Assembly (NCBI GenBank): GCA_034521495.1
Contig: JAXHMK010000019.1
Coordinates: forward strand, 124,001-188,000
Length of the DNA: 64,000 bases
From: Balneolaceae bacterium
GTDB lineage: Bacteria; Bacteroidota; Rhodothermia; Balneolales; Balneolaceae
Direction: 5' to 3'
Positions 21,592-33,610 of the stretch are shown piece by piece (the first letter of the stretch is position 1; each line of letters begins with the position of its first letter). A model generated the notes under the pieces. That model was not told the DNA's origin and searched no databases. It was given only the letters and a program-made list of their open reading frames with translations. The position numbers and the translations under genes are program-made.

Positions 21592-24111
21592 TTAATCGTG
21601 AATCTTATTTCTGTCTTCCAATACCTGTACAATAGACGGTAAAAATGTCAGGGCCGTAATCAGCGTCATTCCAATACCAATTACCGCCATCGTTCCGATA
21701 GAGTTCAATCCGGGATGATTGGTGAAGAGCAGACCGGCAAATCCCATCATTGTTGTTATTGAACCAATAGTAATATGCTGACCGGTACTGGAAAGAACCT
21801 CCCACATATTTTTCTCGCCTTCATCCCGAAATCGGTGAGCCAGGTGCACACCATTATCACAACCAATTCCAAGAATAGCGGGCAACACTACAAGATTGTA
21901 AAAATTGAATTTCAGGCCGAAAATCAAAAGTATCCCGAACAGCCAAAGCAATCCTATGATAAGGGGTATCAGTGCAATGAACGTCCAGCGAAAACTTCTG
22001 AATGAAACCAATATGATGATAAATACAACTATAAATGTAGCCAATACCATATAGGGACTCTCCTTACGCATAAGGTCGAGCATCGTTGCTGCCACGATAG
22101 ATGTACTTGCGGCATGATAAACCGTACCATCATCGAGAGTAATATCTGAAATCTCATTTTTAAAAGCGATCGACTTCAAGCCATCTGATAAACCCGGTTT
22201 TGGATAAACAATGACAAACCGTCCAATTTCCCCGTCTTTGGTCATGAACCTGTTTTTCAGGTAATCGGGAATCCGGTCTTCGTCCAGCGGCTCTCTTGTT
22301 TGTGAACCTCTTCGCAGAATATCGAGCGTTTCGCTCTCTTGATTTACAATAAAATCATTCTGGAGCAACTGCCTGATCCTGGAAATATATTTGAGTTTCT
22401 CCTCCGCTAATTCCTGTGTTGGCGGGAATCGCTCCTGCAAGGCTTCTACTTCATCAATAAGAGTTTCAGGATTTTCCTCCTTTTTGGTTCTGATTTTCTC
22501 AAGAACCTTAAAAACATCTTCTGTATTGTCTGTAATGATGTAGGCTGAATTTCTTCGGGTGTCTTCATCTGCTGCTTTTACAAAACTTCTAAACTCATCG
22601 TACTCCTCGTAGTCAGGTTCCAGTACTCCAAAATCGTATTCAAACCGAAGGTTGCCGGAAAAAGACAAAACAACCACAGAGATCAACAGTCCAAAAACAA
22701 CAATTGTTCTCGAAAACGGAAAACGTCGAATCACAGGCTTTTGGACTTTATCTTTTGCTCGTTCAACCAGCAGAATCCAGTTCCATCGGTCGAAAATTAC
22801 AAGCAGTGCCGGTAATACATATAACATGCAGAGGAGAGCCAAAACAATACCCAAACCCGCTATGAAACCAAATTCTGAGAAACCTCTGAAATCGGCTACA
22901 AGAAGTATAAAAAGTGCAGATGCGGTGGTAATGGCACTTACAAGTATGGCGGTTCCTGTTTTTCGATAAGATGCAAATACACTATCCTCAACGGATAACC
23001 CGGATGAACGAATCTCAATATATCGTGCATAGAAATGAATACCGTAATCAATTCCCAGGCCAAACAGAATCACAAAAAGTACGGAGGTCATTGTATTTAA
23101 CACTCCCAGAACCATATATGTAATGCCAAACGTCCACATGAGACTGATCAGCAATGGCAGACCGATAATAATCACAGGAACGGGCATTCGAATAATATGC
23201 TGAAAAATACCATGATCTTTATCTGATGCCGTCCCCCTTCGATAGTTGATATATTTCTTTCCGCCAAAGTAGATCATCACCAAAAGAATAACGCTCGAAA
23301 TTCCAAGTGCAAAGCTGTTGAATACATCATTCATAATGGATTCGAACTCAGTCAGATGCCGTTTTAACCGGCCGCCAAACTTTACCTCCATCTCCGGATG
23401 AAATGACTTTGGGTTCATTTTATCGATCAGTTCCTGGTACCGGTCGAACATATCTTCCAGGTATCGAATATTATTCTGCGAACCTGTTGGATAAAGAGTT
23501 AAAATTACCAGTGTACTATCTTCATTCACCTGGTATTCCGATGGAATCAGGTTGTCGTAACTCTGCTGGAATTGGTCAATTTGGCTCGAATCTTCATCTC
23601 CATCTTCCGATTCTTCATCTTCAAAATCAGCACCAAAATCCACGAAAAAAGGATTGGCTTCTTCTCGCGCCTCATCAATCTCTGCTTGCAAAAAATCGAT
23701 GATATCCTGAAGCTCTGAAGTAGTTGCAAGATATAATGCGTTATCTTTCAGAACCCCGGTTTCCCGTCTTAACTCCGCCCTGTTGAAGAAATAAATATCC
23801 TGCCGCGGATAGTAGAGATTCAGACTGCTGTCTGCTAATTGCCTGGCAAACTCAATATTTGCCTGGAAATCGGGAGATTTGATACCCACTTTCATTTCTG
23901 TTTCTCCCCCGGCTACATCTTTCAGCTTTTCAAGGGCTTGTACATTTGGATTGGACTCGGGAAGCAGATTGGCAAGATCTGTATCAACCTGCAAACGAAT
24001 TGCAAATATAGAAGCCAAAATCGCTAAACCGATCGATATGCCCAAAACCCAAAAGGGATGGTGAATATTAAATTTTACGAGAGGCTCAAAAAACTGAATT
24101 AATTTTTTCAT
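21592..24111 (-). CDS. RND/MMPL superfamily exporter with SSD-like halves
   Basis: This 839-residue protein has two pseudo-repeats, each with one membrane helix, a large periplasmic loop and a bundle of five helices. The sterol-sensing/MMPL signatures are GLGIDYGIHFYARYIE in the first half and GIGCDNGVHLAHRF in the second, carrying the acidic residues used for proton coupling. Family members export lipids, hopanoids or hydrophobic compounds. The first loop contains a poly-acidic patch (DFEDEESEDGDEDS). No periplasmic adaptor or TolC-like gene is adjacent, as is usual for this subgroup. The substrate cannot be inferred. Confidence 0.85.
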   Translation of the reverse strand: MKKLIQFFEPLVKFNIHHPFWVLGISIGLAILASIFAIRLQVDTDLANLLPESNPNVQALEKLKDVAGGETEMKVGIKSPDFQANIEFARQLADSSLNLYYPRQDIYFFNRAELRRETGVLKDNALYLATTSELQDIIDFLQAEIDEAREEANPFFVDFGADFEDEESEDGDEDSSQIDQFQQSYDNLIPSEYQVNEDSTLVILTLYPTGSQNNIRYLEDMFDRYQELIDKMNPKSFHPEMEVKFGGRLKRHLTEFESIMNDVFNSFALGISSVILLVMIYFGGKKYINYRRGTASDKDHGIFQHIIRMPVPVIIIGLPLLISLMWTFGITYMVLGVLNTMTSVLFVILFGLGIDYGIHFYARYIEIRSSGLSVEDSVFASYRKTGTAILVSAITTASALFILLVADFRGFSEFGFIAGLGIVLALLCMLYVLPALLVIFDRWNWILLVERAKDKVQKPVIRRFPFSRTIVVFGLLISVVVLSFSGNLRFEYDFGVLEPDYEEYDEFRSFVKAADEDTRRNSAYIITDNTEDVFKVLEKIRTKKEENPETLIDEVEALQERFPPTQELAEEKLKYISRIRQLLQNDFIVNQESETLDILRRGSQTREPLDEDRIPDYLKNRFMTKDGEIGRFVIVYPKPGLSDGLKSIAFKNEISDITLDDGTVYHAASTSIVAATMLDLMRKESPYMVLATFIVVFIIILVSFRSFRWTFIALIPLIIGLLWLFGILLIFGLKFNFYNLVVLPAILGIGCDNGVHLAHRFRDEGEKNMWEVLSSTGQHITIGSITTMMGFAGLLFTNHPGLNSIGTMAVIGIGMTLITALTFLPSIVQVLEDRNKIHD

Positions 24112-26154: not shown

Positions 26155-26658
26155 ATGGATCATTCATTTGCTAAAAAGGGAATAAAAATTATTGGTGTAA
26201 TTTTTGTTATCTATGTCGGTCTCGTTGCCACACACGAGGGGGAATTTTGGCCGTTTAGTATCTATCCTATGTTTTCTCAGGCTGGAAATCCCTGGACACG
26301 TGCCATCGTTTTAAATGTAACCGATCTTCCCGATGATCAAATATGGGAAAAACATCTGTTTAGCGAACGAGTAGCCGAACCGGTTCCGCTCAAAGAACAT
26401 GGCATTGATCAGATAGATTTTTCAAATTTTATATCAAAAACCCAAAACTGGACACCGGAGCGCAGGGATGCTCTGCAATTTATGTTTGGGCAGAATAATC
26501 TTAAGTCTCAGCGCTGGATGGCCTCAAAAGTAGAGGGAAAACTTATTGAAAATGATTCTGTAGTCGTAGAGATAAAACCATACTTATTAGTCACAGCCGA
26601 TACTGTTCGCATGAATCCGACCTTAGACGAATCTGAATATATAAGCGGGGAGGAATAG
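26155..26658 (+). CDS. Single-pass membrane protein, partner of HTTM-like protein (pair 1)
   Basis: I do not recognise the family. The 167-residue protein has one N-terminal membrane helix (about residues 10-26), then EGEFWPFSIYPMFSQ, and a mixed alpha/beta domain predicted to lie outside the membrane. The stop codon is followed directly by the ATG of the HTTM-like gene, so the two are translationally coupled. A protein of the same size and design, with PWPAFVFPGF after its helix, precedes the second HTTM-like gene at 27580-28677. The W-P-x3-(Y/F)-P-x-F pattern is common to both. I infer an accessory subunit of the polytopic partner. Confidence 0.7.
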   Translation: MDHSFAKKGIKIIGVIFVIYVGLVATHEGEFWPFSIYPMFSQAGNPWTRAIVLNVTDLPDDQIWEKHLFSERVAEPVPLKEHGIDQIDFSNFISKTQNWTPERRDALQFMFGQNNLKSQRWMASKVEGKLIENDSVVVEIKPYLLVTADTVRMNPTLDESEYISGEE

Positions 26659-27549
26659 ATGCGGTGGTATGAAAAAATTGCCCATCAGCTATTTGAACCC
26701 AAAAGAGATGTTTCTCCGGGAGAGCTCATTTTCTTCAAATTCTTTGAGCTGTTTATCCTTTTCTACACCATTCAATATTCATGGAAATGGGGGCTTTATG
26801 CAACATACCACAACTCTGAAGTAGTACTGCCGCTTGGCCTTGCAAATTATATCGATGTGTCCCTTTTCTTTGATACGAACATTCCAATTATCATAGCAGT
26901 CCTGGTTTCAATCTTTGCGATTTTTAGTTATTTCCGGATAGGTTCAAAATGGTTTTATACAGTTGTCCTTATATTGCTCCATCTGCAATATGTTATTCGG
27001 TTCTCGCAGGGTGAAATACCCCATAGCCAAAACATGATCGGTTTATCTGTATTTTGCCTGGCTGTTGGTTCTGTATTCTTCCCGGGGAAGGAAAAAATGC
27101 CCCGTTTTGTTTTAGGGGCTGTCATATTTTTTGTGGGGCTGGGATATACTTCTGCATTCTTCTCAAAACTGGTTGCATCCGGTATCCACTGGTTTGATGG
27201 ACGACATCTCTGGCTCTGGATTGGTGAAAAAAGTGTAGATATTATTTCTCGTGAAGGCAGTTTCCAGCTGAATTTTTTACAGCAACTGGCGTTAAGCAGT
27301 ACAACAGTGGCTTCCGTAATTTTGCTTTTTGGATGGCTTACAGAGTTAATCGGTTTTACAATGTGGTGGAAAAAACTGCGCCCCTATACTACATCTCTCC
27401 TTATCCTGATGCATATCGGTATTACATTAACAATGAGCATTCGGTTTGATGCATTTGTTTTTCAACTGATTTTGATTGGATACCCCTGGTACATTTTGAT
27501 TGACCGAATCGTAACCTCTGCGCCGCAATGGATCAGTAAAACTGTTTGA
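26659..27549 (+). CDS. HTTM/VKGC-like polytopic membrane protein (pair 1)
   Basis: This 296-residue protein has about seven membrane helices. The N-terminal PGELIFFKFFELFILFYT, the HSQNMIGLSVFCLAVG helix and the final LILIGYPWYILI helix have the look of the HTTM family (horizontally transferred transmembrane domain, related to vitamin K-dependent gamma-carboxylase) or DoxX-like proteins. No enzymatic residue can be assigned with confidence. It is coupled to the upstream single-pass gene. The convergent gene across 30 bases at 27580 is a second member of the same general class. Confidence 0.6.
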   Translation: MRWYEKIAHQLFEPKRDVSPGELIFFKFFELFILFYTIQYSWKWGLYATYHNSEVVLPLGLANYIDVSLFFDTNIPIIIAVLVSIFAIFSYFRIGSKWFYTVVLILLHLQYVIRFSQGEIPHSQNMIGLSVFCLAVGSVFFPGKEKMPRFVLGAVIFFVGLGYTSAFFSKLVASGIHWFDGRHLWLWIGEKSVDIISREGSFQLNFLQQLALSSTTVASVILLFGWLTELIGFTMWWKKLRPYTTSLLILMHIGITLTMSIRFDAFVFQLILIGYPWYILIDRIVTSAPQWISKTV

Positions 27550-27579
27550 GGTTTCGATAGGTTCAGCAACGAGTTTGTC

Positions 27580-28677
27580 TCACTTGGCACCAAGTTTTTG
27601 AACAGACTGATAAATTTGAGAGCTCAAATAATAGAGAGCTATCGGCAAGGCTATGAGTAAGATATAAAATTCAGAGGTCCTCAAATCAGAACTCAGAGCA
27701 GGAATGCTTAGGTAATCCGCAACAAATACTATCCCCAAAACCATTACAAAAAATATTACAAGAAGTACTATAGATGCATATCGTTGGGACGGAAATTTCT
27801 CTTTGATTTTATTATGAATGGCTGACCAGTTTAAAAAAGCCGCATAAGCCAAAAAATTGGGAAGAAAAGCGATGTTTAGAAGCATCATCGTTGAAAAGTG
27901 AAAAATGACCGCAAAGCAAACAAATATTCGGGTTGTTTTAGGATGCAAAATAGCCAGCAGAAAACCCGCCTCAAACAATACTGTTCCGTAATCAAGCAGT
28001 TCCCATGCAATTTTATTTTCAACATAGATCGCATATTCTGCCAGCAGATCCTGGCGGCCGTTCAGAAAAAACTGTTTAAAGTAGTGGCCATACGTAGCCT
28101 GTGTTCCAACATCCAGCCAGCCCCCTAAAATTTTTGGAAAGCCGGCTGTAAACATCATGAATCCAATCATGAATGCTAACAGAACTACAGGCCAGCTTTG
28201 TACTTTGTTATCAACTATTTTTTTTGAGTTCAAAAACGCATCAACCGAATAAGTTTTACCCCATCCGCTAAAGGCCATCACCATCGGTACGACTGCTATC
28301 AACAGGTCGTGATTAATTTTACCAACACTGTAAAAAAGTCCTTTCAGCACAAGAATGATAACACCCGTTGATAGGGATACAAACTTCGTTTTGAAGCCTA
28401 TTAACAGGGATATTAGAGAAGCAACCAGGAAAAAATGCAGAATATAGAATACAATTTCCGGCGGAAAATCTTGAAATATCGCCATCGGTCCGGGCGGAGG
28501 ATTATAGAAATCTTGCGGAAGAGAACCTAAAAAACTATAAATGCCGGTTGAAGGAAGCAGAAAAGCCAACAAAAACAGCGAAGTGAAAATCCGGTAAAGT
28601 GCCAGACCTTCCGGCGTTACTGAAAACGATCTGAAAATCCAGTTCGAGAACCTGTTTTTTTCGTTTGAATTCATCAC
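27580..28677 (-). CDS. HTTM-family membrane protein (pair 2)
   Basis: This 365-residue protein has about nine membrane helices and the typical HTTM opening: a short cytosolic stretch, then TPEGLALYRIFTSLFLLAFL. A conserved-looking KINHDLLIAVVPMVMAFSGWG loop and a GYGTVLFEAGFLLAI-type helix follow (here DYGTVLFEAGFLLAI). HTTM proteins resemble the membrane part of gamma-glutamyl carboxylase; most bacterial members have no known substrate. Its ATG overlaps the TGA of the upstream single-pass gene by four bases, so the pair is translationally coupled. It is convergent with pair 1. Confidence 0.65.
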   Translation of the reverse strand: MMNSNEKNRFSNWIFRSFSVTPEGLALYRIFTSLFLLAFLLPSTGIYSFLGSLPQDFYNPPPGPMAIFQDFPPEIVFYILHFFLVASLISLLIGFKTKFVSLSTGVIILVLKGLFYSVGKINHDLLIAVVPMVMAFSGWGKTYSVDAFLNSKKIVDNKVQSWPVVLLAFMIGFMMFTAGFPKILGGWLDVGTQATYGHYFKQFFLNGRQDLLAEYAIYVENKIAWELLDYGTVLFEAGFLLAILHPKTTRIFVCFAVIFHFSTMMLLNIAFLPNFLAYAAFLNWSAIHNKIKEKFPSQRYASIVLLVIFFVMVLGIVFVADYLSIPALSSDLRTSEFYILLIALPIALYYLSSQIYQSVQKLGAK

Positions 28678-29156
28678 TCAAAACCAAGTGGAATGGTAAT
28701 TGTTTGAGACGTCTCCCGGCCTGTAATACTCACTGAATTTTCATCATGGCGATAGCTGACAACCGACCACTCTAACTGCAATGATGAAAAATTTTCATCG
28801 GGATAAAGCCGGTCGAGCCTGTTACGAAACCATTCTTTAGCCTCATCGCTGAACTTTCGCTGATCGCTGAAATTACTCCTCAAAAAACCCTGCAACTGAG
28901 ATGCTGGTAGTCCTTCAAACAGGGCGGAAGGAGCTATTTCAATTCTCTCTCCAGGTTTGCTCCCCGGAACGGCAAAAAAACGTGCCTCGTCAATCTCAAC
29001 ATTGCCTTCCGTTGAATAAATGGTTTTAAATCCCGGAAAAACGAAAGCAGGCCAGGGCTCACTGTAGTGTAATCCTACAACCCCAACCAATATATATTGG
29101 AATGGCAAATAGAAAATAAAAAACAGGAAAATTCGCTTAACGGTTTTGGATTCCAT
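28674..29156 (-). CDS. Single-pass membrane protein, partner of HTTM-like protein (pair 2)
   Basis: This 160-residue protein has one N-terminal helix (FLFFIFYLPFQYILVGVVGL, residues about 10-29), SEPWPAFVFPGF directly after it, and a soluble C-terminal domain. Size, topology and the W-P...P-x-F motif match the protein at 26155-26658, though overall identity is low by eye. It overlaps the HTTM gene by four bases. It is divergent from the GT4 gene at 29217. Function unknown; I infer the same accessory role as in pair 1. Confidence 0.65.
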   Translation of the reverse strand: MESKTVKRIFLFFIFYLPFQYILVGVVGLHYSEPWPAFVFPGFKTIYSTEGNVEIDEARFFAVPGSKPGERIEIAPSALFEGLPASQLQGFLRSNFSDQRKFSDEAKEWFRNRLDRLYPDENFSSLQLEWSVVSYRHDENSVSITGRETSQTITIPLGFE

Positions 29157-29216: not shown

Positions 29217-30356
29217 TTGAAAACATATCAAATATTTCTCTTGCCTGAAATTATTTTGCAAAAAGTATTACACTACAAAACAAACTTTCTAAATCCCTCC
29301 GAAACGTTCATCGACCGGCTCGTGCAAAATCATCTTCGATATAAGCCATCTGTACTTTGTTATCGGAAAAAATCGTTTACAGAAAATATTGAAGTTCACC
29401 AGGTGCCCTCATCAGGTATTCAGGCATGGATAAATATTGCCGCTTTTCATGCCAATCTCTCTCTTCCTTTTTACGACAAAACCATTCAAAATCTACAGCC
29501 GGATCTGATTCACGCACACTTTGGCTATGACGCCTACAAACTTATCAGCCTTGCACAAAAACACGAAATTCCACTGGTTGTTAGCTTTTACGGGAGCGAT
29601 GTTTCCCGTTTACCTTCTGAATTTGGCTGGAAAAGACGATACAGAATACTTGCATCAAACGGAAGTCATTTTATAGCGGCAACAGATTACATGAAATCTC
29701 AACTGACGGATCTCGGATTTCCGGAAACGAAAATTTCTGTGGTGCGATTTGGGTTAAATTTGAAAAAATTTGAATACCGGGAAAATTCACTCAACCCAAA
29801 AAAAATGATGATGGTGGGGCGAATGGTCGAAAAAAAAGGATATAAATACGCTATTGAGGCCGTATCAAACCTATTTAAAATGGGGTTAAAACCAGAGTTG
29901 AACATCTATGGATACGGCCCTCTTAAAAAAAGGCTGCAAAAATATGCGGCCGATCTACAAGTAGATGATTGCATCCACTTTCATGGATATCAGCCTATTG
30001 AAACGATTATAGATGCTCACGATCAGCATACTCTCATTCTTGCTCCAAGCACCACCGCAGCCGATGGTGATATGGAGGGTTTGCCAAATACGGTTTTGGA
30101 AGGGATGGCCAAAGGAACCCTGGTGGTTGCATCCCGGCATGCGGCAATTCCTGAAGCTGTTAAAGACAAGGAAACAGGCTTCCTGTTTGATGAGAAAGAT
30201 GTGGATGGGATGACCGAAACTCTCAGAAAAATAATGGTCGGGGAATATGACTTAAACACCATCCGAAGAGATGCCCGTTCTCTTGTGGAGAAGGAGTACG
30301 GCATAACCAGAATGGTTCATGAAGTGGAACAGATTTACGATGCTGAAACAGCTTAA
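29217..30356 (+). CDS. Glycosyltransferase family 4 protein
   Basis: This 379-residue GT-B enzyme has an N-terminal domain with NPSETFID, IHAHFGYDAY and VVSFYGSDV, and a C-terminal donor domain with MVGRMVEKKGY, GYGPL and PNTVLEGMAKG. It resembles colanic-acid-type GT4 proteins. The frame has no ATG ahead of the conserved core: 29217 is TTG, and TTGs at 29241 and 29256 are also possible. 29256 would place the start next to KVLHYKTNFLNPSETFI, where relatives usually begin, so the annotated N-terminus is uncertain. It opens the plus-strand run with the polymer transferase and the sulfotransferases. Confidence 0.82.
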   Translation: MKTYQIFLLPEIILQKVLHYKTNFLNPSETFIDRLVQNHLRYKPSVLCYRKKSFTENIEVHQVPSSGIQAWINIAAFHANLSLPFYDKTIQNLQPDLIHAHFGYDAYKLISLAQKHEIPLVVSFYGSDVSRLPSEFGWKRRYRILASNGSHFIAATDYMKSQLTDLGFPETKISVVRFGLNLKKFEYRENSLNPKKMMMVGRMVEKKGYKYAIEAVSNLFKMGLKPELNIYGYGPLKKRLQKYAADLQVDDCIHFHGYQPIETIIDAHDQHTLILAPSTTAADGDMEGLPNTVLEGMAKGTLVVASRHAAIPEAVKDKETGFLFDEKDVDGMTETLRKIMVGEYDLNTIRRDARSLVEKEYGITRMVHEVEQIYDAETA

Positions 30357-30467: not shown

Positions 30468-31637
30468 ATGAAGATACTGATCTATGCGACAACCTTTGGA
30501 GCAGACCTGCTCAGCTTTACCAAATATCTGTCTGACAACACCAATTCTGATGTAAAGGTTGTATCAAACGATGCTGATAAATTTCAAAAAGAAGGTATCG
30601 TTGATTTTTGGGACCTTAATATTGATTTGCAAAGCACCAATAAAATGAGCCCCCTGAGAGGTATTAAAGGCTTTGAGCCAGATATTACAATTATGGATAA
30701 TAATATCCCATTGCGTAAAATCAGCCCGAAAGCATTGATACTTTGGCACGGGTATGGCTGGAAAGGTCCCAATGATGAAGTAGAATGGAAATGGATTCAT
30801 CGAAATATTGGACTCACCTGGGGAAGCATGAAAGAACCCAATCCTGATATAAAATGGCAATGTTTTGGCCCTGTTGATTTTGAACATAGAACCAAAGTCA
30901 GCGGATTTCATCCCGAAAATTGCCGTACACTCGGTTCAGCCAGTCACGATTATCTAAAAAAAGATGTTCCCAAAGAAGACCTTCAGCCCTATTATCCTTT
31001 TGATGTAGTGAATCGAAAAACAGTACTTATTGCTCCTACCTGGCACTATGGAGAAGTTTTTTCGCACTGGGGAGATGACGATACTCTTTTCAATAAATTA
31101 TTAACTGATCTCCAGGAACGAAATGTAAATGTAATTCTTCGGCTGCACGACTCTTTCCGATTTGAGCATCACTACCTTGAGTTTCTGCAACAACTTGAAA
31201 CTTCTTACAGTAATGTATTGCTAAAATATAAAGATCATCATCCAGACAACTTCCTGGACCTTCAGGTTGCCGATCTGTTAGTAACCAATTTTAGCAGTAT
31301 TGCCAACCTGTTTTATGCTACAAAACGCCCAACCGTACATATTTACCCGGTAAAAAGTAAAGACGAATCGTTTATGTGGCTCAATAAAACAATCTTAGGC
31401 ATCCGCAAGAAAAAAGTAGATTCAGTGAAATTTATCTGGAAATATCCCCCCGAAGACAACGGCGGTTTACTGGCCCGAAATTTCGATACAATGATGGATC
31501 AAATTATTACCGGGCTGGAACAACCCGATTGCTGTGAGGAAGCAGCTCGTAAATATCTTGACAAACATATGCTATCTGCTGATGGAAAAAGTTGTGAACG
31601 TATCTGGAACACTGTTAAAGAACTTGTAGAAAACTGA
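30468..31637 (+). CDS. CDP-glycerol glycerophosphotransferase-like protein
   Basis: This 389-residue protein has the GT-B-like fold of TagB/TagF-type polymerases: HGYGWKG in the first half, VLIAPTWHYGE, ILRLHDS, and ADLLVTNFSSIANLFYATKRP, which matches the D-(V/L)-L-(I/V)-T-(D/N)-(Y/F)-S-S motif. In Gram-negatives such enzymes often build glycerol- or ribitol-phosphate decorations on surface polysaccharide. There is no membrane helix. It lies between the GT4 and the sulfotransferase genes. Donor identity is inferred from the family only. Confidence 0.75.
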   Translation: MKILIYATTFGADLLSFTKYLSDNTNSDVKVVSNDADKFQKEGIVDFWDLNIDLQSTNKMSPLRGIKGFEPDITIMDNNIPLRKISPKALILWHGYGWKGPNDEVEWKWIHRNIGLTWGSMKEPNPDIKWQCFGPVDFEHRTKVSGFHPENCRTLGSASHDYLKKDVPKEDLQPYYPFDVVNRKTVLIAPTWHYGEVFSHWGDDDTLFNKLLTDLQERNVNVILRLHDSFRFEHHYLEFLQQLETSYSNVLLKYKDHHPDNFLDLQVADLLVTNFSSIANLFYATKRPTVHIYPVKSKDESFMWLNKTILGIRKKKVDSVKFIWKYPPEDNGGLLARNFDTMMDQIITGLEQPDCCEEAARKYLDKHMLSADGKSCERIWNTVKELVEN

Positions 31638-31673: not shown

Positions 31674-32687
31674 TTGAGCCAGACAATAACATCGAAAGAT
31701 TTAGACGATACCAAAAACCGGATATTCTTTATTATGGGTACAAGCCGGTCTGGTTCTACGCTGCTGCAAAGTATGCTCAGCAGCCATAGTGAACTGATTG
31801 TACCTCCCGAAACCCATTTCTTTCATTCATATCAACATCTGAGAGACGAATACAATCGTACAACTGAAAAGAGCTCATTCAGAGACGGCCTGGTTGATTT
31901 CTGGTATGACCATAAAACAAGAATACGGGATCTGGATCTTCAAAAAGAAGATGTTTTACAACTGGCAAATAATTTAAATCTCACAGCTCCCCTTGATCTG
32001 TTTATACTTCAACTTACCATGTACAGAATACAGCGGGATAAGCCAATTCTTGGTGAAAAAACGCCTCGGCATATGCTGCATATTCCGGAAATTTTAGCAG
32101 CTTTTCCCGATGCAAAAATTATATCTCTATTTAGAGATCCCCGGGCCAAGGCCTATTCCGAAATAAAAACGAAGTTCGGTTCCCCCTCCGTCTTTGTTTC
32201 TGCCAAACGATGGCGTAAATATGTACAGGTTCATCAACGGTTTGAGAAGGAGCTTTCTGATGAACAATACATGATGCTCAGATATACCGATTTAATTTCG
32301 GATGTAGAAGGAGTCCTCCAAAAAATTTGTGCCTTTTTAGGCGTATCTTTTCAGGAACAGATGCTAAACTATTACAACCGTGACGAAAAAGGATTTGCAG
32401 ACGGAGAAAACTCCTGGAAAAAACAGACTCTCAAACCAATTCAAAAGAACAAAAATAAGGAGTGGAAATCGGCCTTAACAGACTGGCAAATTGTATTGAT
32501 TGAAAAGCATACCGGCAAATATTTAAAATATATGAACTATCAAAAATGGTCGGAAGCCTCTTTTTCTTTCCCAAAAAAAATGTATTGGCAGGCCATCGAT
32601 TTTAGCAGATCCGTGCTGGCAACTCTCAGCGGATCAAGAGGTGAAGGGTATAGTGATCCTAATAAATTTACATTGAACAGAAACTAA
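31674..32687 (+). CDS. PAPS-dependent sulfotransferase
   Basis: This 337-residue protein has the 5-prime phosphosulfate loop GTSRSGSTLL near residue 22 and the 3-prime phosphate motif IISLFRDPRAKAYSE near residue 150. Both are diagnostic for the sulfotransferase fold that moves sulfate from PAPS to a hydroxyl or amine. HFFHSY may supply the catalytic region. The start at 31674 is TTG, since no ATG lies before the P-loop. The gene follows the CDP-glycerol-type enzyme by 36 bases and precedes a second sulfotransferase by 26. No PAPS synthesis genes are in the window. Confidence 0.82.
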   Translation: MSQTITSKDLDDTKNRIFFIMGTSRSGSTLLQSMLSSHSELIVPPETHFFHSYQHLRDEYNRTTEKSSFRDGLVDFWYDHKTRIRDLDLQKEDVLQLANNLNLTAPLDLFILQLTMYRIQRDKPILGEKTPRHMLHIPEILAAFPDAKIISLFRDPRAKAYSEIKTKFGSPSVFVSAKRWRKYVQVHQRFEKELSDEQYMMLRYTDLISDVEGVLQKICAFLGVSFQEQMLNYYNRDEKGFADGENSWKKQTLKPIQKNKNKEWKSALTDWQIVLIEKHTGKYLKYMNYQKWSEASFSFPKKMYWQAIDFSRSVLATLSGSRGEGYSDPNKFTLNRN

Positions 32688-32713
32688 AGAAACAGTAGAA
32701 CAAAGCAGAAAAC

Positions 32714-33610
32714 GTGGGTGTACTAAAAAAAATTGGTGACCAAATAACAGCATTATCCGATGCTATGGGTTTTGAACGCAGAGATCTCCAGGCTGATTTT
32801 GGAGTTCCCTGGCATTTTGTAAAAAGCAAAATTTTGAATTCTCATTTTAAATGGGATTATAATGAAATTGAGCGATACTGCATGTTTATCGGGTATCCCC
32901 GAAGCGGACACACGCTGGTAGGGTCGCTGCTGGATGCACATCCCGAGGTCGTTATCTCACACGAACTGGATGCCCTTCGATACCTCAGGGCCGGATTTAG
33001 CCGCGAGCAGATCTTCGCGATGATTCTACATAAAGACAAAGTTTTTACGGGAAAGGGACGCGAATGGACCGGTTACGATTACGCAGTAGAAGGATTGTGG
33101 CAGGGGCGTTATCGGCGATTGAGAGTTATTGGCGATAAGAAAGGCGGAGGCTCTTCCCGTCACCTCCAGGCAAAACCAGACATTATTGAAAAACTGCGAA
33201 AAAAAATGCAGGTACCCATCAAACTGATTCACATCGTTCGGCATCCCCTTGATAACATCGCCACTCATAAACGCAAGTATTCCATCAAACCCACCCTTCA
33301 GGAGGCAATTGATGATTACTTTAAGAGAGTTGAAGCAAATGCTAAATTGAAAACTGAAGTAGCCGATGAGGAATGGTGCGAACTAACCCATGAACAGTTT
33401 ATTGAGGACCCCGAGAAGTCTCTCACAACACTGATAGAGTTTCTTGAAGTTGAACCGTATGAAGATTACATCAAAGCGGCAGCAGATAAGGTGTTCAGTT
33501 CTCCGTCAAACAGCCGTAATAAAATTGAATGGCCAAAAGAGATGATCGACCAGGTAGCGGAAAGGAGCCAAAAATATGATTTTTTAAAAGATTACGATTT
33601 TACGGTTTAG
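32714..33610 (+). CDS. Second sulfotransferase-family protein
   Basis: This 298-residue P-loop protein has a GYPRSGHTLVGSLLDAHPE nucleotide loop near residue 58 and the downstream HIVRHPLDNIATHKRK motif, the 5-prime and 3-prime PAPS-binding segments. It is only distantly like its upstream neighbour, so the two probably sulfate different positions. The start is GTG at 32714. It is the last gene of the glycan run and is convergent with rdgB. Confidence 0.8.
   Translation: MGVLKKIGDQITALSDAMGFERRDLQADFGVPWHFVKSKILNSHFKWDYNEIERYCMFIGYPRSGHTLVGSLLDAHPEVVISHELDALRYLRAGFSREQIFAMILHKDKVFTGKGREWTGYDYAVEGLWQGRYRRLRVIGDKKGGGSSRHLQAKPDIIEKLRKKMQVPIKLIHIVRHPLDNIATHKRKYSIKPTLQEAIDDYFKRVEANAKLKTEVADEEWCELTHEQFIEDPEKSLTTLIEFLEVEPYEDYIKAAADKVFSSPSNSRNKIEWPKEMIDQVAERSQKYDFLKDYDFTV

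What the first reader, a model, noticed from the sequence alone, without database searches (positions are those of the whole stretch)
26155..29156. Duplicated module: single-pass protein + HTTM-like membrane protein, facing pairs
Two gene pairs converge: 26155-26658/26659-27549 on the plus strand and 28674-29156/27580-28677 on the minus strand. In each, a 160-residue single-pass protein carrying a W-P-x3-(Y/F)-P-x-F motif just after its helix is translationally coupled to a polytopic HTTM/VKGC-like protein. HTTM proteins are related to gamma-carboxylase but mostly uncharacterised. Constant pairing suggests a two-subunit membrane enzyme or sensor, here within a sulfated-glycan cluster. This is my leading candidate for an undescribed protein system in the window.
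Basis: partly seen in the sequence, partly recalled or inferred. Interest (0 to 1): 0.65.

Follow-up and report, generated by a model that had tools for sequence, protein, structure and literature searches.

The report
Two split vitamin-K-carboxylase-like membrane enzymes
Two facing gene pairs in a Rhodohalobacter-like bacterium each seem to encode, as two separate proteins, the two halves of a membrane enzyme built like the human vitamin K carboxylase, placed among genes that build and export surface sugars.

Summary
A1 (26155-26658+)/B1 (26659-27549+) and A2 (28674-29156-)/B2 (27580-28677-) are real, coupled, convergent gene pairs.
Pairing is conserved: in 92 family genomes A1 is directly 5' of B1 at 58 of 60 places, and 27 of 27 A2 have B2; also 79 of 79 kept genome-contig loci.
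B1 and B2 models match human gamma-glutamyl carboxylase (GGCX) far above other folds (Z 13.5, 16.4) and keep GGCX-like H, K, W, H positions nearly invariantly.
The small partner looks like the missing GGCX half (TM9, linker, lumenal domain) supplied in trans. Its W-P-x3-Y-P-x-F segment also ends single-chain HTTM proteins, B2 and A1 are fused in one genus, and 18 of 18 compact HTTM frames kept from a phylum sample have a 5' single-pass partner (controls 0 of 50, 1 of 54). SdpA/SdpB has the same layout without SdpA sequence similarity.
Chemistry is inferred: a quinol-dependent, periplasmic-face enzyme in a surface-glycan export locus. Substrate and reaction are unknown; lumenal-domain homology is not significant by sequence; no A1/B1 interface was predicted.

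The parts
26155..26658 (+). A1: single-pass small partner, 167 aa; helix about residues 3-26, then GEFWPFSIYPMFS, then a small alpha/beta domain
   Evidence: no Pfam/NCBIfam match
26239..26277 (+). A1 motif G29-S41 (GEFWPFSIYPMFS), proposed equivalent of the GGCX TM9-lumenal linker
   Evidence: 86 of 89 distinct A1 relatives found without the motif scan
26659..27549 (+). B1: compact polytopic protein with the GGCX transmembrane fold, 296 aa
   Evidence: VIA Z 13.5, 257 residues on GGCX 31-331; hhalign to B2 90%; no Pfam match
27022..27024 (+). B1 H122 (GGCX H160-like), 91 of 92 rows
27166..27168 (+). B1 K170 (GGCX K218-like), 92 of 92 rows
27412..27414 (+). B1 H252 (position of the GGCX histidine after F286), 92 of 92 rows
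27580..28677 (-). B2: HTTM protein, 365 aa, GGCX transmembrane fold plus two C-terminal helices
   Evidence: Pfam HTTM 42.4 bits, cut-off 27.7; VIA Z 16.4, 290 residues; hhalign to bacterial VKGC TMD 96%; helices
28309..28311 (-). B2 H123 (GGCX H160-like, in I-N-H), 30 of 30 rows
28132..28134 (-). B2 K182 (GGCX K218-like; W187 at K+5 as W223 in GGCX), 30 of 30 rows
27898..27900 (-). B2 H260 (position of the GGCX histidine after F286), 30 of 30 rows
28674..29156 (-). A2: single-pass small partner of B2, 160 aa
   Evidence: next to B2 at 27 of 27 places
29028..29060 (-). A2 motif E33-F43 (EPWPAFVFPGF) directly after the helix
21592..24111 (-). MMPL-family exporter, the commonest conserved neighbour of A1/B1
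   Evidence: cluster c0 in 65 of 108 distinct relative loci (75 of 124 before merging); Pfam MMPL on a member; window gene 78% identical to a member
29217..30356 (+). GT4 glycosyltransferase, conserved neighbour
   Evidence: cluster c1 in 50 of 108 distinct loci
31674..33610 (+). two sulfotransferase genes downstream of the pairs
   Evidence: Pfam Sulfotransfer_3 on both

Best explanation
Each pair is a two-chain ('split') membrane enzyme of the gamma-glutamyl-carboxylase (GGCX/VKGC, HTTM) superfamily. B is the transmembrane catalytic half: a conserved lysine in the place of the GGCX base that deprotonates the hydroquinone, with the facing histidine, tryptophan and second histidine around the quinone pocket. 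A is the other half supplied in trans: the equivalent of TM9, followed at once by a membrane-embedded linker (W-P-x3-Y/F-P-x-F, in the place of GGCX G-Y-S-W-D-M-M, which walls the vitamin-K pocket) and a periplasmic substrate-gripping domain. The two pairs belong to one system and probably one assembly. I infer that menaquinol bound in B is oxidised and the strong base so made acts on a substrate presented by A at the outer face of the inner membrane, most likely a glycolipid or lipid-linked glycan, or a protein of its export route, made by the surrounding glycosyltransferase, flippase, MMPL and Wzi genes. Shown: pairing, GGCX fold of B (predicted models), conserved landmark residues, fusions, glycan-locus context. 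Inferred: the A-to-GGCX equivalence, quinone use, the reaction, the substrate.
For: GGCX stands out among solved folds: B2 Foldseek 14 matches at E up to 0.001, all GGCX, VIA Z 16.4 over 290 residues, next unrelated chain 7.0; B1 VIA Z 13.5 over 257 residues, next unrelated 4.8. Profile homology: B2 to bacterial VKGC TMD 96%, B1 to B2 90%, above 40 of 40 window shuffles and the reversed profile. H/K/W/H conserved where GGCX has H160, K218, W223 and the histidine after F286. Pairing: 58 of 60; 27 of 27; 79 of 79. Same motif after a C-terminal TM in single-chain HTTM proteins L155, L156, L367, that is, in GGCX domain order. B2::A1 fusion in 5 genomes of genus g64, in operon A2-(B2::A1)-B1. Four-gene order A2-B2-A1-B1 in L227, L230/L278, L279. 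18 of 18 compact HTTM frames kept have a 5' single-pass partner; controls 0 of 50 and 1 of 54. Surface-glycan neighbours. The genome also encodes VKOR and a full-length VKGC.
Against: By sequence, the A domains are not demonstrably related to the VKGC lumenal domain: A2 21.5% (above 40 of 40 shuffles), A1 0.7% (4 of 40 shuffles as good). The A1-B1 read-through model gives no confident interface: pTM 0.70, residues 37-45 under pLDDT 50. For B1, Foldseek has no match at E up to 0.001 (best 0.021), and its Z of 13.5 is near the level that the tool warns can occur for helical bundles; B1 to VKGC TMD directly is only 12.7%. Conserved H/K/W could be structural in this fold: seven SdpB rows and two Flavobacteria-type compact HTTMs have no histidine in the H160 segment yet also have partners. 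A1/B1 often occur without A2/B2: 57 genomes have B1, 26 have A2, so the pairs are not obligate partners of each other. No substrate gene was identified, and the glycan-locus context could partly reflect shared synteny within the class.
Confidence: 0.6

Rival explanations
1. SdpA/SdpB-like peptide maturation: the pairs process or modify a secreted peptide or protein rather than a glycan.
For: Same layout as SdpA/SdpB (small single-pass protein with an aromatic motif after its helix, then compact HTTM, adjacent or overlapping genes); [quoted passage not shown] an HTTM gene occurs in a linaridin cluster (PMC9927463, passages).
Against: SdpB model TIGR04033 finds nothing in the own genome and SdpA model TIGR04034 finds nothing there; hhalign SdpA to A1/A2 under 1%; no recurrent small secreted precursor was noticed among neighbours, which are largely glycan genes, though genes under 90 aa were not called; SdpB has no histidine in the segment where B1/B2 keep one.
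Confidence: 0.2
2. Non-catalytic assembly factor: the GGCX-like half is a scaffold or chaperone for the MMPL exporter or glycan machinery, and the conserved residues are structural.
For: MMPL gene in 64 of the 97 distinct loci with A1/B1, DUF3047 in 42, often divergent from A1; no histidine in the H160 segment of other HTTM pairs.
Against: B1 K170, W178, H252 and B2 H123, K182, W187, H260 are invariant in the rows examined although the proteins are otherwise diverged; B2 profile is closest to true VKGC among those compared.
Confidence: 0.15
3. Two unrelated coupled pairs that merely share hydrophobic composition and sit together by chance.
For: No phmmer hit between the pairs; A1/A2 profile similarity not significant.
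Against: B1/B2 profile homology and common fold; convergent arrangement in 20 genomes; B2::A1 fusion and four-gene operons.
Confidence: 0.03

Closest known systems
GGCX / bacterial VKGC (HTTM PF05090 + VKGC_lumenal_dom PF22777)
   Same: Transmembrane fold, H/K/W/H landmarks, domain order when fused (TMD, TM, linker, lumenal domain).
   Different: Here the TM9-lumenal half is a separate gene without a PF22777 match; no propeptide substrate known; activity untested.
SdpA/SdpB (TIGR04034/TIGR04033) and YitP/YitO of Bacillus subtilis
   Same: Two-gene layout, single-pass partner with an aromatic motif after the helix, compact HTTM.
   Different: No match to either model, no detectable SdpA similarity, no H160-like histidine in seven SdpB rows, no SdpC-like gene noticed, glycan setting.
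DUF5819 (PF19136) proteins beside compact HTTM genes (L359, L362)
   Same: 5' single-pass partner with W-x-L-F-A-P after its helix.
   Different: A1 and A2 do not match DUF5819.
Single-chain HTTM proteins L155, L156, L367
   Same: B2-like HTTM core followed by a TM and S-W-P-x3-Y-P-T-F.
   Different: One chain of 539-547 aa instead of two.

Membership tests
HTTM (Pfam PF05090) | B2 match above curated cut-off | tested here: met
   B2 42.4 bits against 27.7; 10 of 28 B2 rows match at E up to 0.01
HTTM (Pfam PF05090) | B1 match above curated cut-off | tested here: not met
   B1 0 families; HTTM not among the families listed for the 141 members of A5, which include its B1 rows. B1 is therefore placed by fold and profile only, not filed as PF05090.
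GGCX/VKGC fold | GGCX transmembrane domain fold | tested here: met
   B2; B1 (Foldseek E only 0.021)
GGCX/VKGC carboxylase | Lysine at the K218 position | tested here: met
   B1 K170 92 of 92, B2 K182 30 of 30; position by hhalign and the GGCX-VKGC alignment
GGCX/VKGC carboxylase | Histidine at the H160 position | tested here: met
   B1 H122 91 of 92, B2 H123 30 of 30
GGCX/VKGC carboxylase | TM9 and lumenal domain (PF22777) in the same chain | tested here: not met
   Separate genes; no PF22777 match; in the own genome PF22777 matches only the C9 protein
GGCX/VKGC carboxylase | Vitamin-K-dependent glutamate carboxylation | not testable with these tools
   needs biochemistry
SdpAB | B protein matches TIGR04033 | tested here: not met
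   0 matches in the own genome
SdpAB | A protein matches TIGR04034 | tested here: not met
   own genome 0 matches; hhalign A1 0.4%, A2 0.9%
SdpAB | SdpC-like precursor gene adjacent | tested here: inconclusive
   none noticed among neighbours, but no SdpC model was run
DUF5819 (PF19136) | A protein matches the family | tested here: not met
   no match for A1/A2; not listed for A5 members; L359 and L362 partners do match

The most novel reading that the evidence does not exclude
A1-B1-A2-B2 is a four-subunit, menaquinol-powered enzyme that uses vitamin-K-type superbase chemistry on a surface glycan or glycolipid (carbanion formation leading to carboxylation or epimerisation) before export. More generally, SdpA, DUF5819 and similar small partners of HTTM proteins are all detached lumenal halves of GGCX-type enzymes.
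Probability: 0.15. Interest if true: 0.9.

Novelty: new variant of a known kind. Interest (0 to 1): 0.6.

Why it matters
HTTM proteins are widespread and, to my knowledge, mostly without assigned function, and how SdpA/SdpB mature a peptide is not explained in the passages read. If compact HTTM proteins are the catalytic half of split GGCX-type enzymes whose other half is the small partner, then known GGCX structures give direct, testable residues (K170/K182, H122/H123, the WP-YP-F linker) for a large unassigned group, and quinone-driven base chemistry would extend from blood-clotting proteins to bacterial surface biosynthesis.

Tried and rejected
Pfam, NCBIfam and PDB sequence searches gave no family for A1, A2 or B1; the weak XopAJ hit of A1 (E 0.14) and the scattered hits were taken as chance. 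A first fused alignment (A5) misplaced the A1 rows (identity mostly 9-18%) and was not used for folding. hhalign of the A families against the VKGC lumenal domain gave at most 21.5%; against SdpA under 1%; against the C-terminal part of L367 about 3% or less, so the link rests on motif, position and fusion. VIA lists were filled by the GGCX transmembrane part, so the A1 domain was barely tested for fold. My first neighbour counts (124 loci) held the same locus twice in some cases; merged counts (108) are. My first control (0 of 50) allowed fewer candidate partners than the test did; the rerun with all frames gives 60 with 7, of which six hosts are HTTM proteins of the test set or the split VKGC of L363, leaving 1 of 54. 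Literature: in the listings shown (capped) for I saw no paper joining HTTM with SdpA/SdpB (HTTM count 0 in the 20 papers) and none describing these pairs; the library is open-access only. A remembered linaridin epimerase precedent was searched, not found in the ten papers listed, and is not used as evidence. A sensor role was dropped for lack of any supporting domain.
Full report
Observation. A1 ends in TAG directly followed by the ATG of B1; A2 and B2 overlap by 4 nt (GTG start) or 1 nt (ATG one codon later). Both small proteins have one hydrophobic helix near the N terminus followed at once by W-P-x3-(Y/F)-P-x-F. B2 is a Pfam HTTM protein (42.4 bits); A1, A2 and B1 match nothing in Pfam or convincingly in NCBIfam, nor do sets of their relatives; 10 of 28 B2 rows match HTTM. 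The window lies in a 4.57 Mb genome. The nearest named relative seen is Rhodohalobacter sulfatireducens WB101 (A1 81% identical; its contig has the length of G068 C66).

Conservation of the pairing. In 92 genomes of the family, B1 is found in 57, A1 in 56, A2 in 26 and B2 in 33. Of 60 B1 places 58 have A1 directly 5' on the same strand; the two exceptions are partial matches of 150 and 67 residues, the first at a contig end. Of 60 A1 places the two unpaired are a second place in G071 and one piece of a split match in G072. All 27 A2 places have B2 downstream. Of 36 B2 places 27 have A2 by this search. The other nine are one at a contig end (G077), four places in G015, G016 and G017 (G017 in two pieces) with a divergent E-P-Y-P-A small protein upstream, and four in long frames of 541-568 aa (G025, G040, G041, G091), of which I inspected G040 and G041. 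B1 and B2 are convergent in 20 genomes; the three other same-contig combinations are distant (G017, two pieces) or a second copy (G072). A scan of the species-genome contig collection with the A1 profile found 94 relatives and kept the best 80 (79 loci), selected by motif; in 79 of 79 B1 lies next. Many of these are the same genomes as above; they also include Reichenbachiella, a Saprospiraceae MAG and a KSB1 MAG. In the class 112 of 244 genomes have a B1 match. In an even phylum sample 50 of 395 genomes match; the two matches outside the class are weak and belong to other HTTM proteins, which also have 5' partners.

One system of four. In some relatives the order is A2-B2-A1-B1 on one strand (L227, L230/L278, L279). 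In genus g64 B2 and A1 are one protein of 520-565 aa in five genomes (L281, L320-L323: both profiles hit the same frame); a sixth genome shows the same frames, not profiled (L355). This ties the two pairs physically. Yet many genomes have A1-B1 without A2-B2, so the pairs can also act alone.

Fold and residues. AlphaFold2 models: B2 pLDDT 89.1, pTM 0.89; A1-Q-B1 read-through chain pLDDT 87.1, pTM 0.70, residues 37-45 under 50. Foldseek and VIA rank human GGCX structures first for both. B2: E 3.7e-05, 14 matches at E up to 0.001, all GGCX; Z 16.4, 290 residues, rmsd 4.5, next unrelated chain Z 7.0. B1: best E 0.021, none at 0.001; Z 13.5, 257 residues of model 168-464 on GGCX 31-331, rmsd 4.2, next unrelated 4.8; the tool warns that Z under about 13 can be a common arrangement for helical bundles. 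Profile comparison: B2 to the TMD of 26 bacterial VKGC rows 96%, E 3.8e-9; B1 to B2 90%, E 1.4e-6; B1 to VKGC TMD 12.7%. For these three the reversed profile and 40 of 40 shuffles within 20-column windows score lower. Aligned landmarks: H122 in B1 and H123 in B2; K170 and K182; W178 and W187; H252 and H260, conserved in 91-92 of 92 B1 rows and 30 of 30 B2 rows (rows not weighted for relatedness). The GGCX paper (PMC12589487, parts 1 and 2 of 3) names K218 as the base deprotonating the hydroquinone, H160, W223 and F286 in the pocket, and the linker after TM9 (Y395, S398, M401, M402) as wall and gate of the pocket; one search shows the GGCX letters, including the histidine after F286, and their match to the bacterial VKGC of this genome.

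The partner. GGCX and VKGC carry after their transmembrane core one more helix, a linker and a lumenal domain. B1 covers only GGCX 31-331. Three single-chain HTTM proteins (L155, L156 of the same family; L367 from another family of the phylum) continue after the core with a helix and N/D-S-W-P-x3-Y-P-T-F, the motif of A1 and A2, at the place of the GGCX linker. From (395 genomes of the phylum, at most six candidates scored per genome) I took the 26 HTTM matches with an open frame under 430 aa. I set aside six broken or cut ones (G043, seen as L363; G497 twice, G463, G454 C107 and G014, not inspected) and two short VKGCs that have PF22777 (G328, G346). Of the 18 kept, 18 have a 5' single-pass partner: 17 by script, and one (G369, SdpB) by the SdpA model, where the script failed on an over-long frame. 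Ten of the 18 are of the B2 type; eight are other types, one of which (G150 C235) runs off its contig. Among other polytopic proteins of similar length 0 of 50 had such a partner when only non-overlapping frames counted, and 1 of 54 when any frame counted as in the test (after removing six HTTM hosts that the script had let in). Two of the partners match DUF5819. Partner motifs differ by lineage (W-x-L-F-A-P, G-Y-S-F-F-A/S-P-N, SdpA G-W-x-F-F-T) but follow the helix; two long HTTM proteins have R-W-D/N-M-F after their last helix (L364, L365). By sequence alone the A domains are not shown to be lumenal domains (A2 21.5%, A1 0.7%). The A-to-GGCX equivalence is therefore an inference from position, motif and fusion.

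Setting. Around the pairs (five called genes either side), 124 loci merged to 108 distinct ones have an MMPL exporter in 65, GT4 glycosyltransferases in 50, DUF3047 in 42, an uncharacterised cluster in 41, a flippase-like cluster (judged from its sequence, not scanned) in 24, an MlaC-type protein in 24, Wzi in 21 and the sulfotransferase-type cluster in 8. Of the 97 distinct loci with A1/B1, 73 have the MMPL or the DUF3047 gene. Many contigs are short, so absences are not informative, and housekeeping neighbours of the genus also occur. The single-chain relatives sit by Wzi and polysaccharide deacetylase (L367), O-antigen ligase (L366), and a polysaccharide flippase and glycosyltransferases (L155). 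In the window the neighbours are the MMPL gene (named through its cluster), two GT4 genes, a CDP-glycerol-transferase-like gene and two sulfotransferases. A glycan or glycolipid substrate is the simplest reading, not a demonstrated one. The genome has a VKOR homologue and a complete VKGC elsewhere, so quinone chemistry of this kind is plausible in the cell.

Against. No predicted interface, no substrate, no demonstrated quinone. Some compact HTTM pairs lack a histidine in the H160 segment, so conserved residues alone do not prove carboxylase-like catalysis. The pairs fail membership as GGCX/VKGC (no lumenal domain in the chain, no PF22777) and as SdpAB (no TIGR match), so I call them a split variant that probably works like the former, and do not file them as either.

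Noticed in passing
L155:8598-10241 (-), L156:8884-10521 (+), L367:3280-4899 (-): Single-chain HTTM proteins of 539-547 aa with the WPxxxYPxF motif in the C-terminal part; Pfam gives L155 and L367 no family for that part (L156 not scanned).
   Followed up: partly
window 21592-24111 (-): MMPL-type exporter gene that stays near A1/B1 in most distinct relative loci, frequently together with a DUF3047 gene; no window gene matched the DUF3047 cluster.
   Followed up: partly
own genome C9:232522-233832 (L001): A complete bacterial VKGC (456 aa, HTTM plus lumenal domain), directly followed by a receptor-like gene; phmmer E 2e-45 to human GGCX.
   Followed up: partly
L359:5224-5919 and L362:5173-5829: DUF5819 proteins lie directly 5' of compact HTTM genes, suggesting that DUF5819 is an HTTM partner family.
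   Followed up: partly
L363:4028-5476: A VKGC gene whose transmembrane half and lumenal half lie in two adjacent frames (300 and 175 aa), possibly a frameshift or a natural split.
   Followed up: no
L131: Two divergent A1-B1 copies and one A2-B2 copy within 10 kb in G072.
   Followed up: no
window 30468-31637 (+): CDP-glycerol glycerophosphotransferase-like gene between a glycosyltransferase and the sulfotransferases.
   Followed up: no
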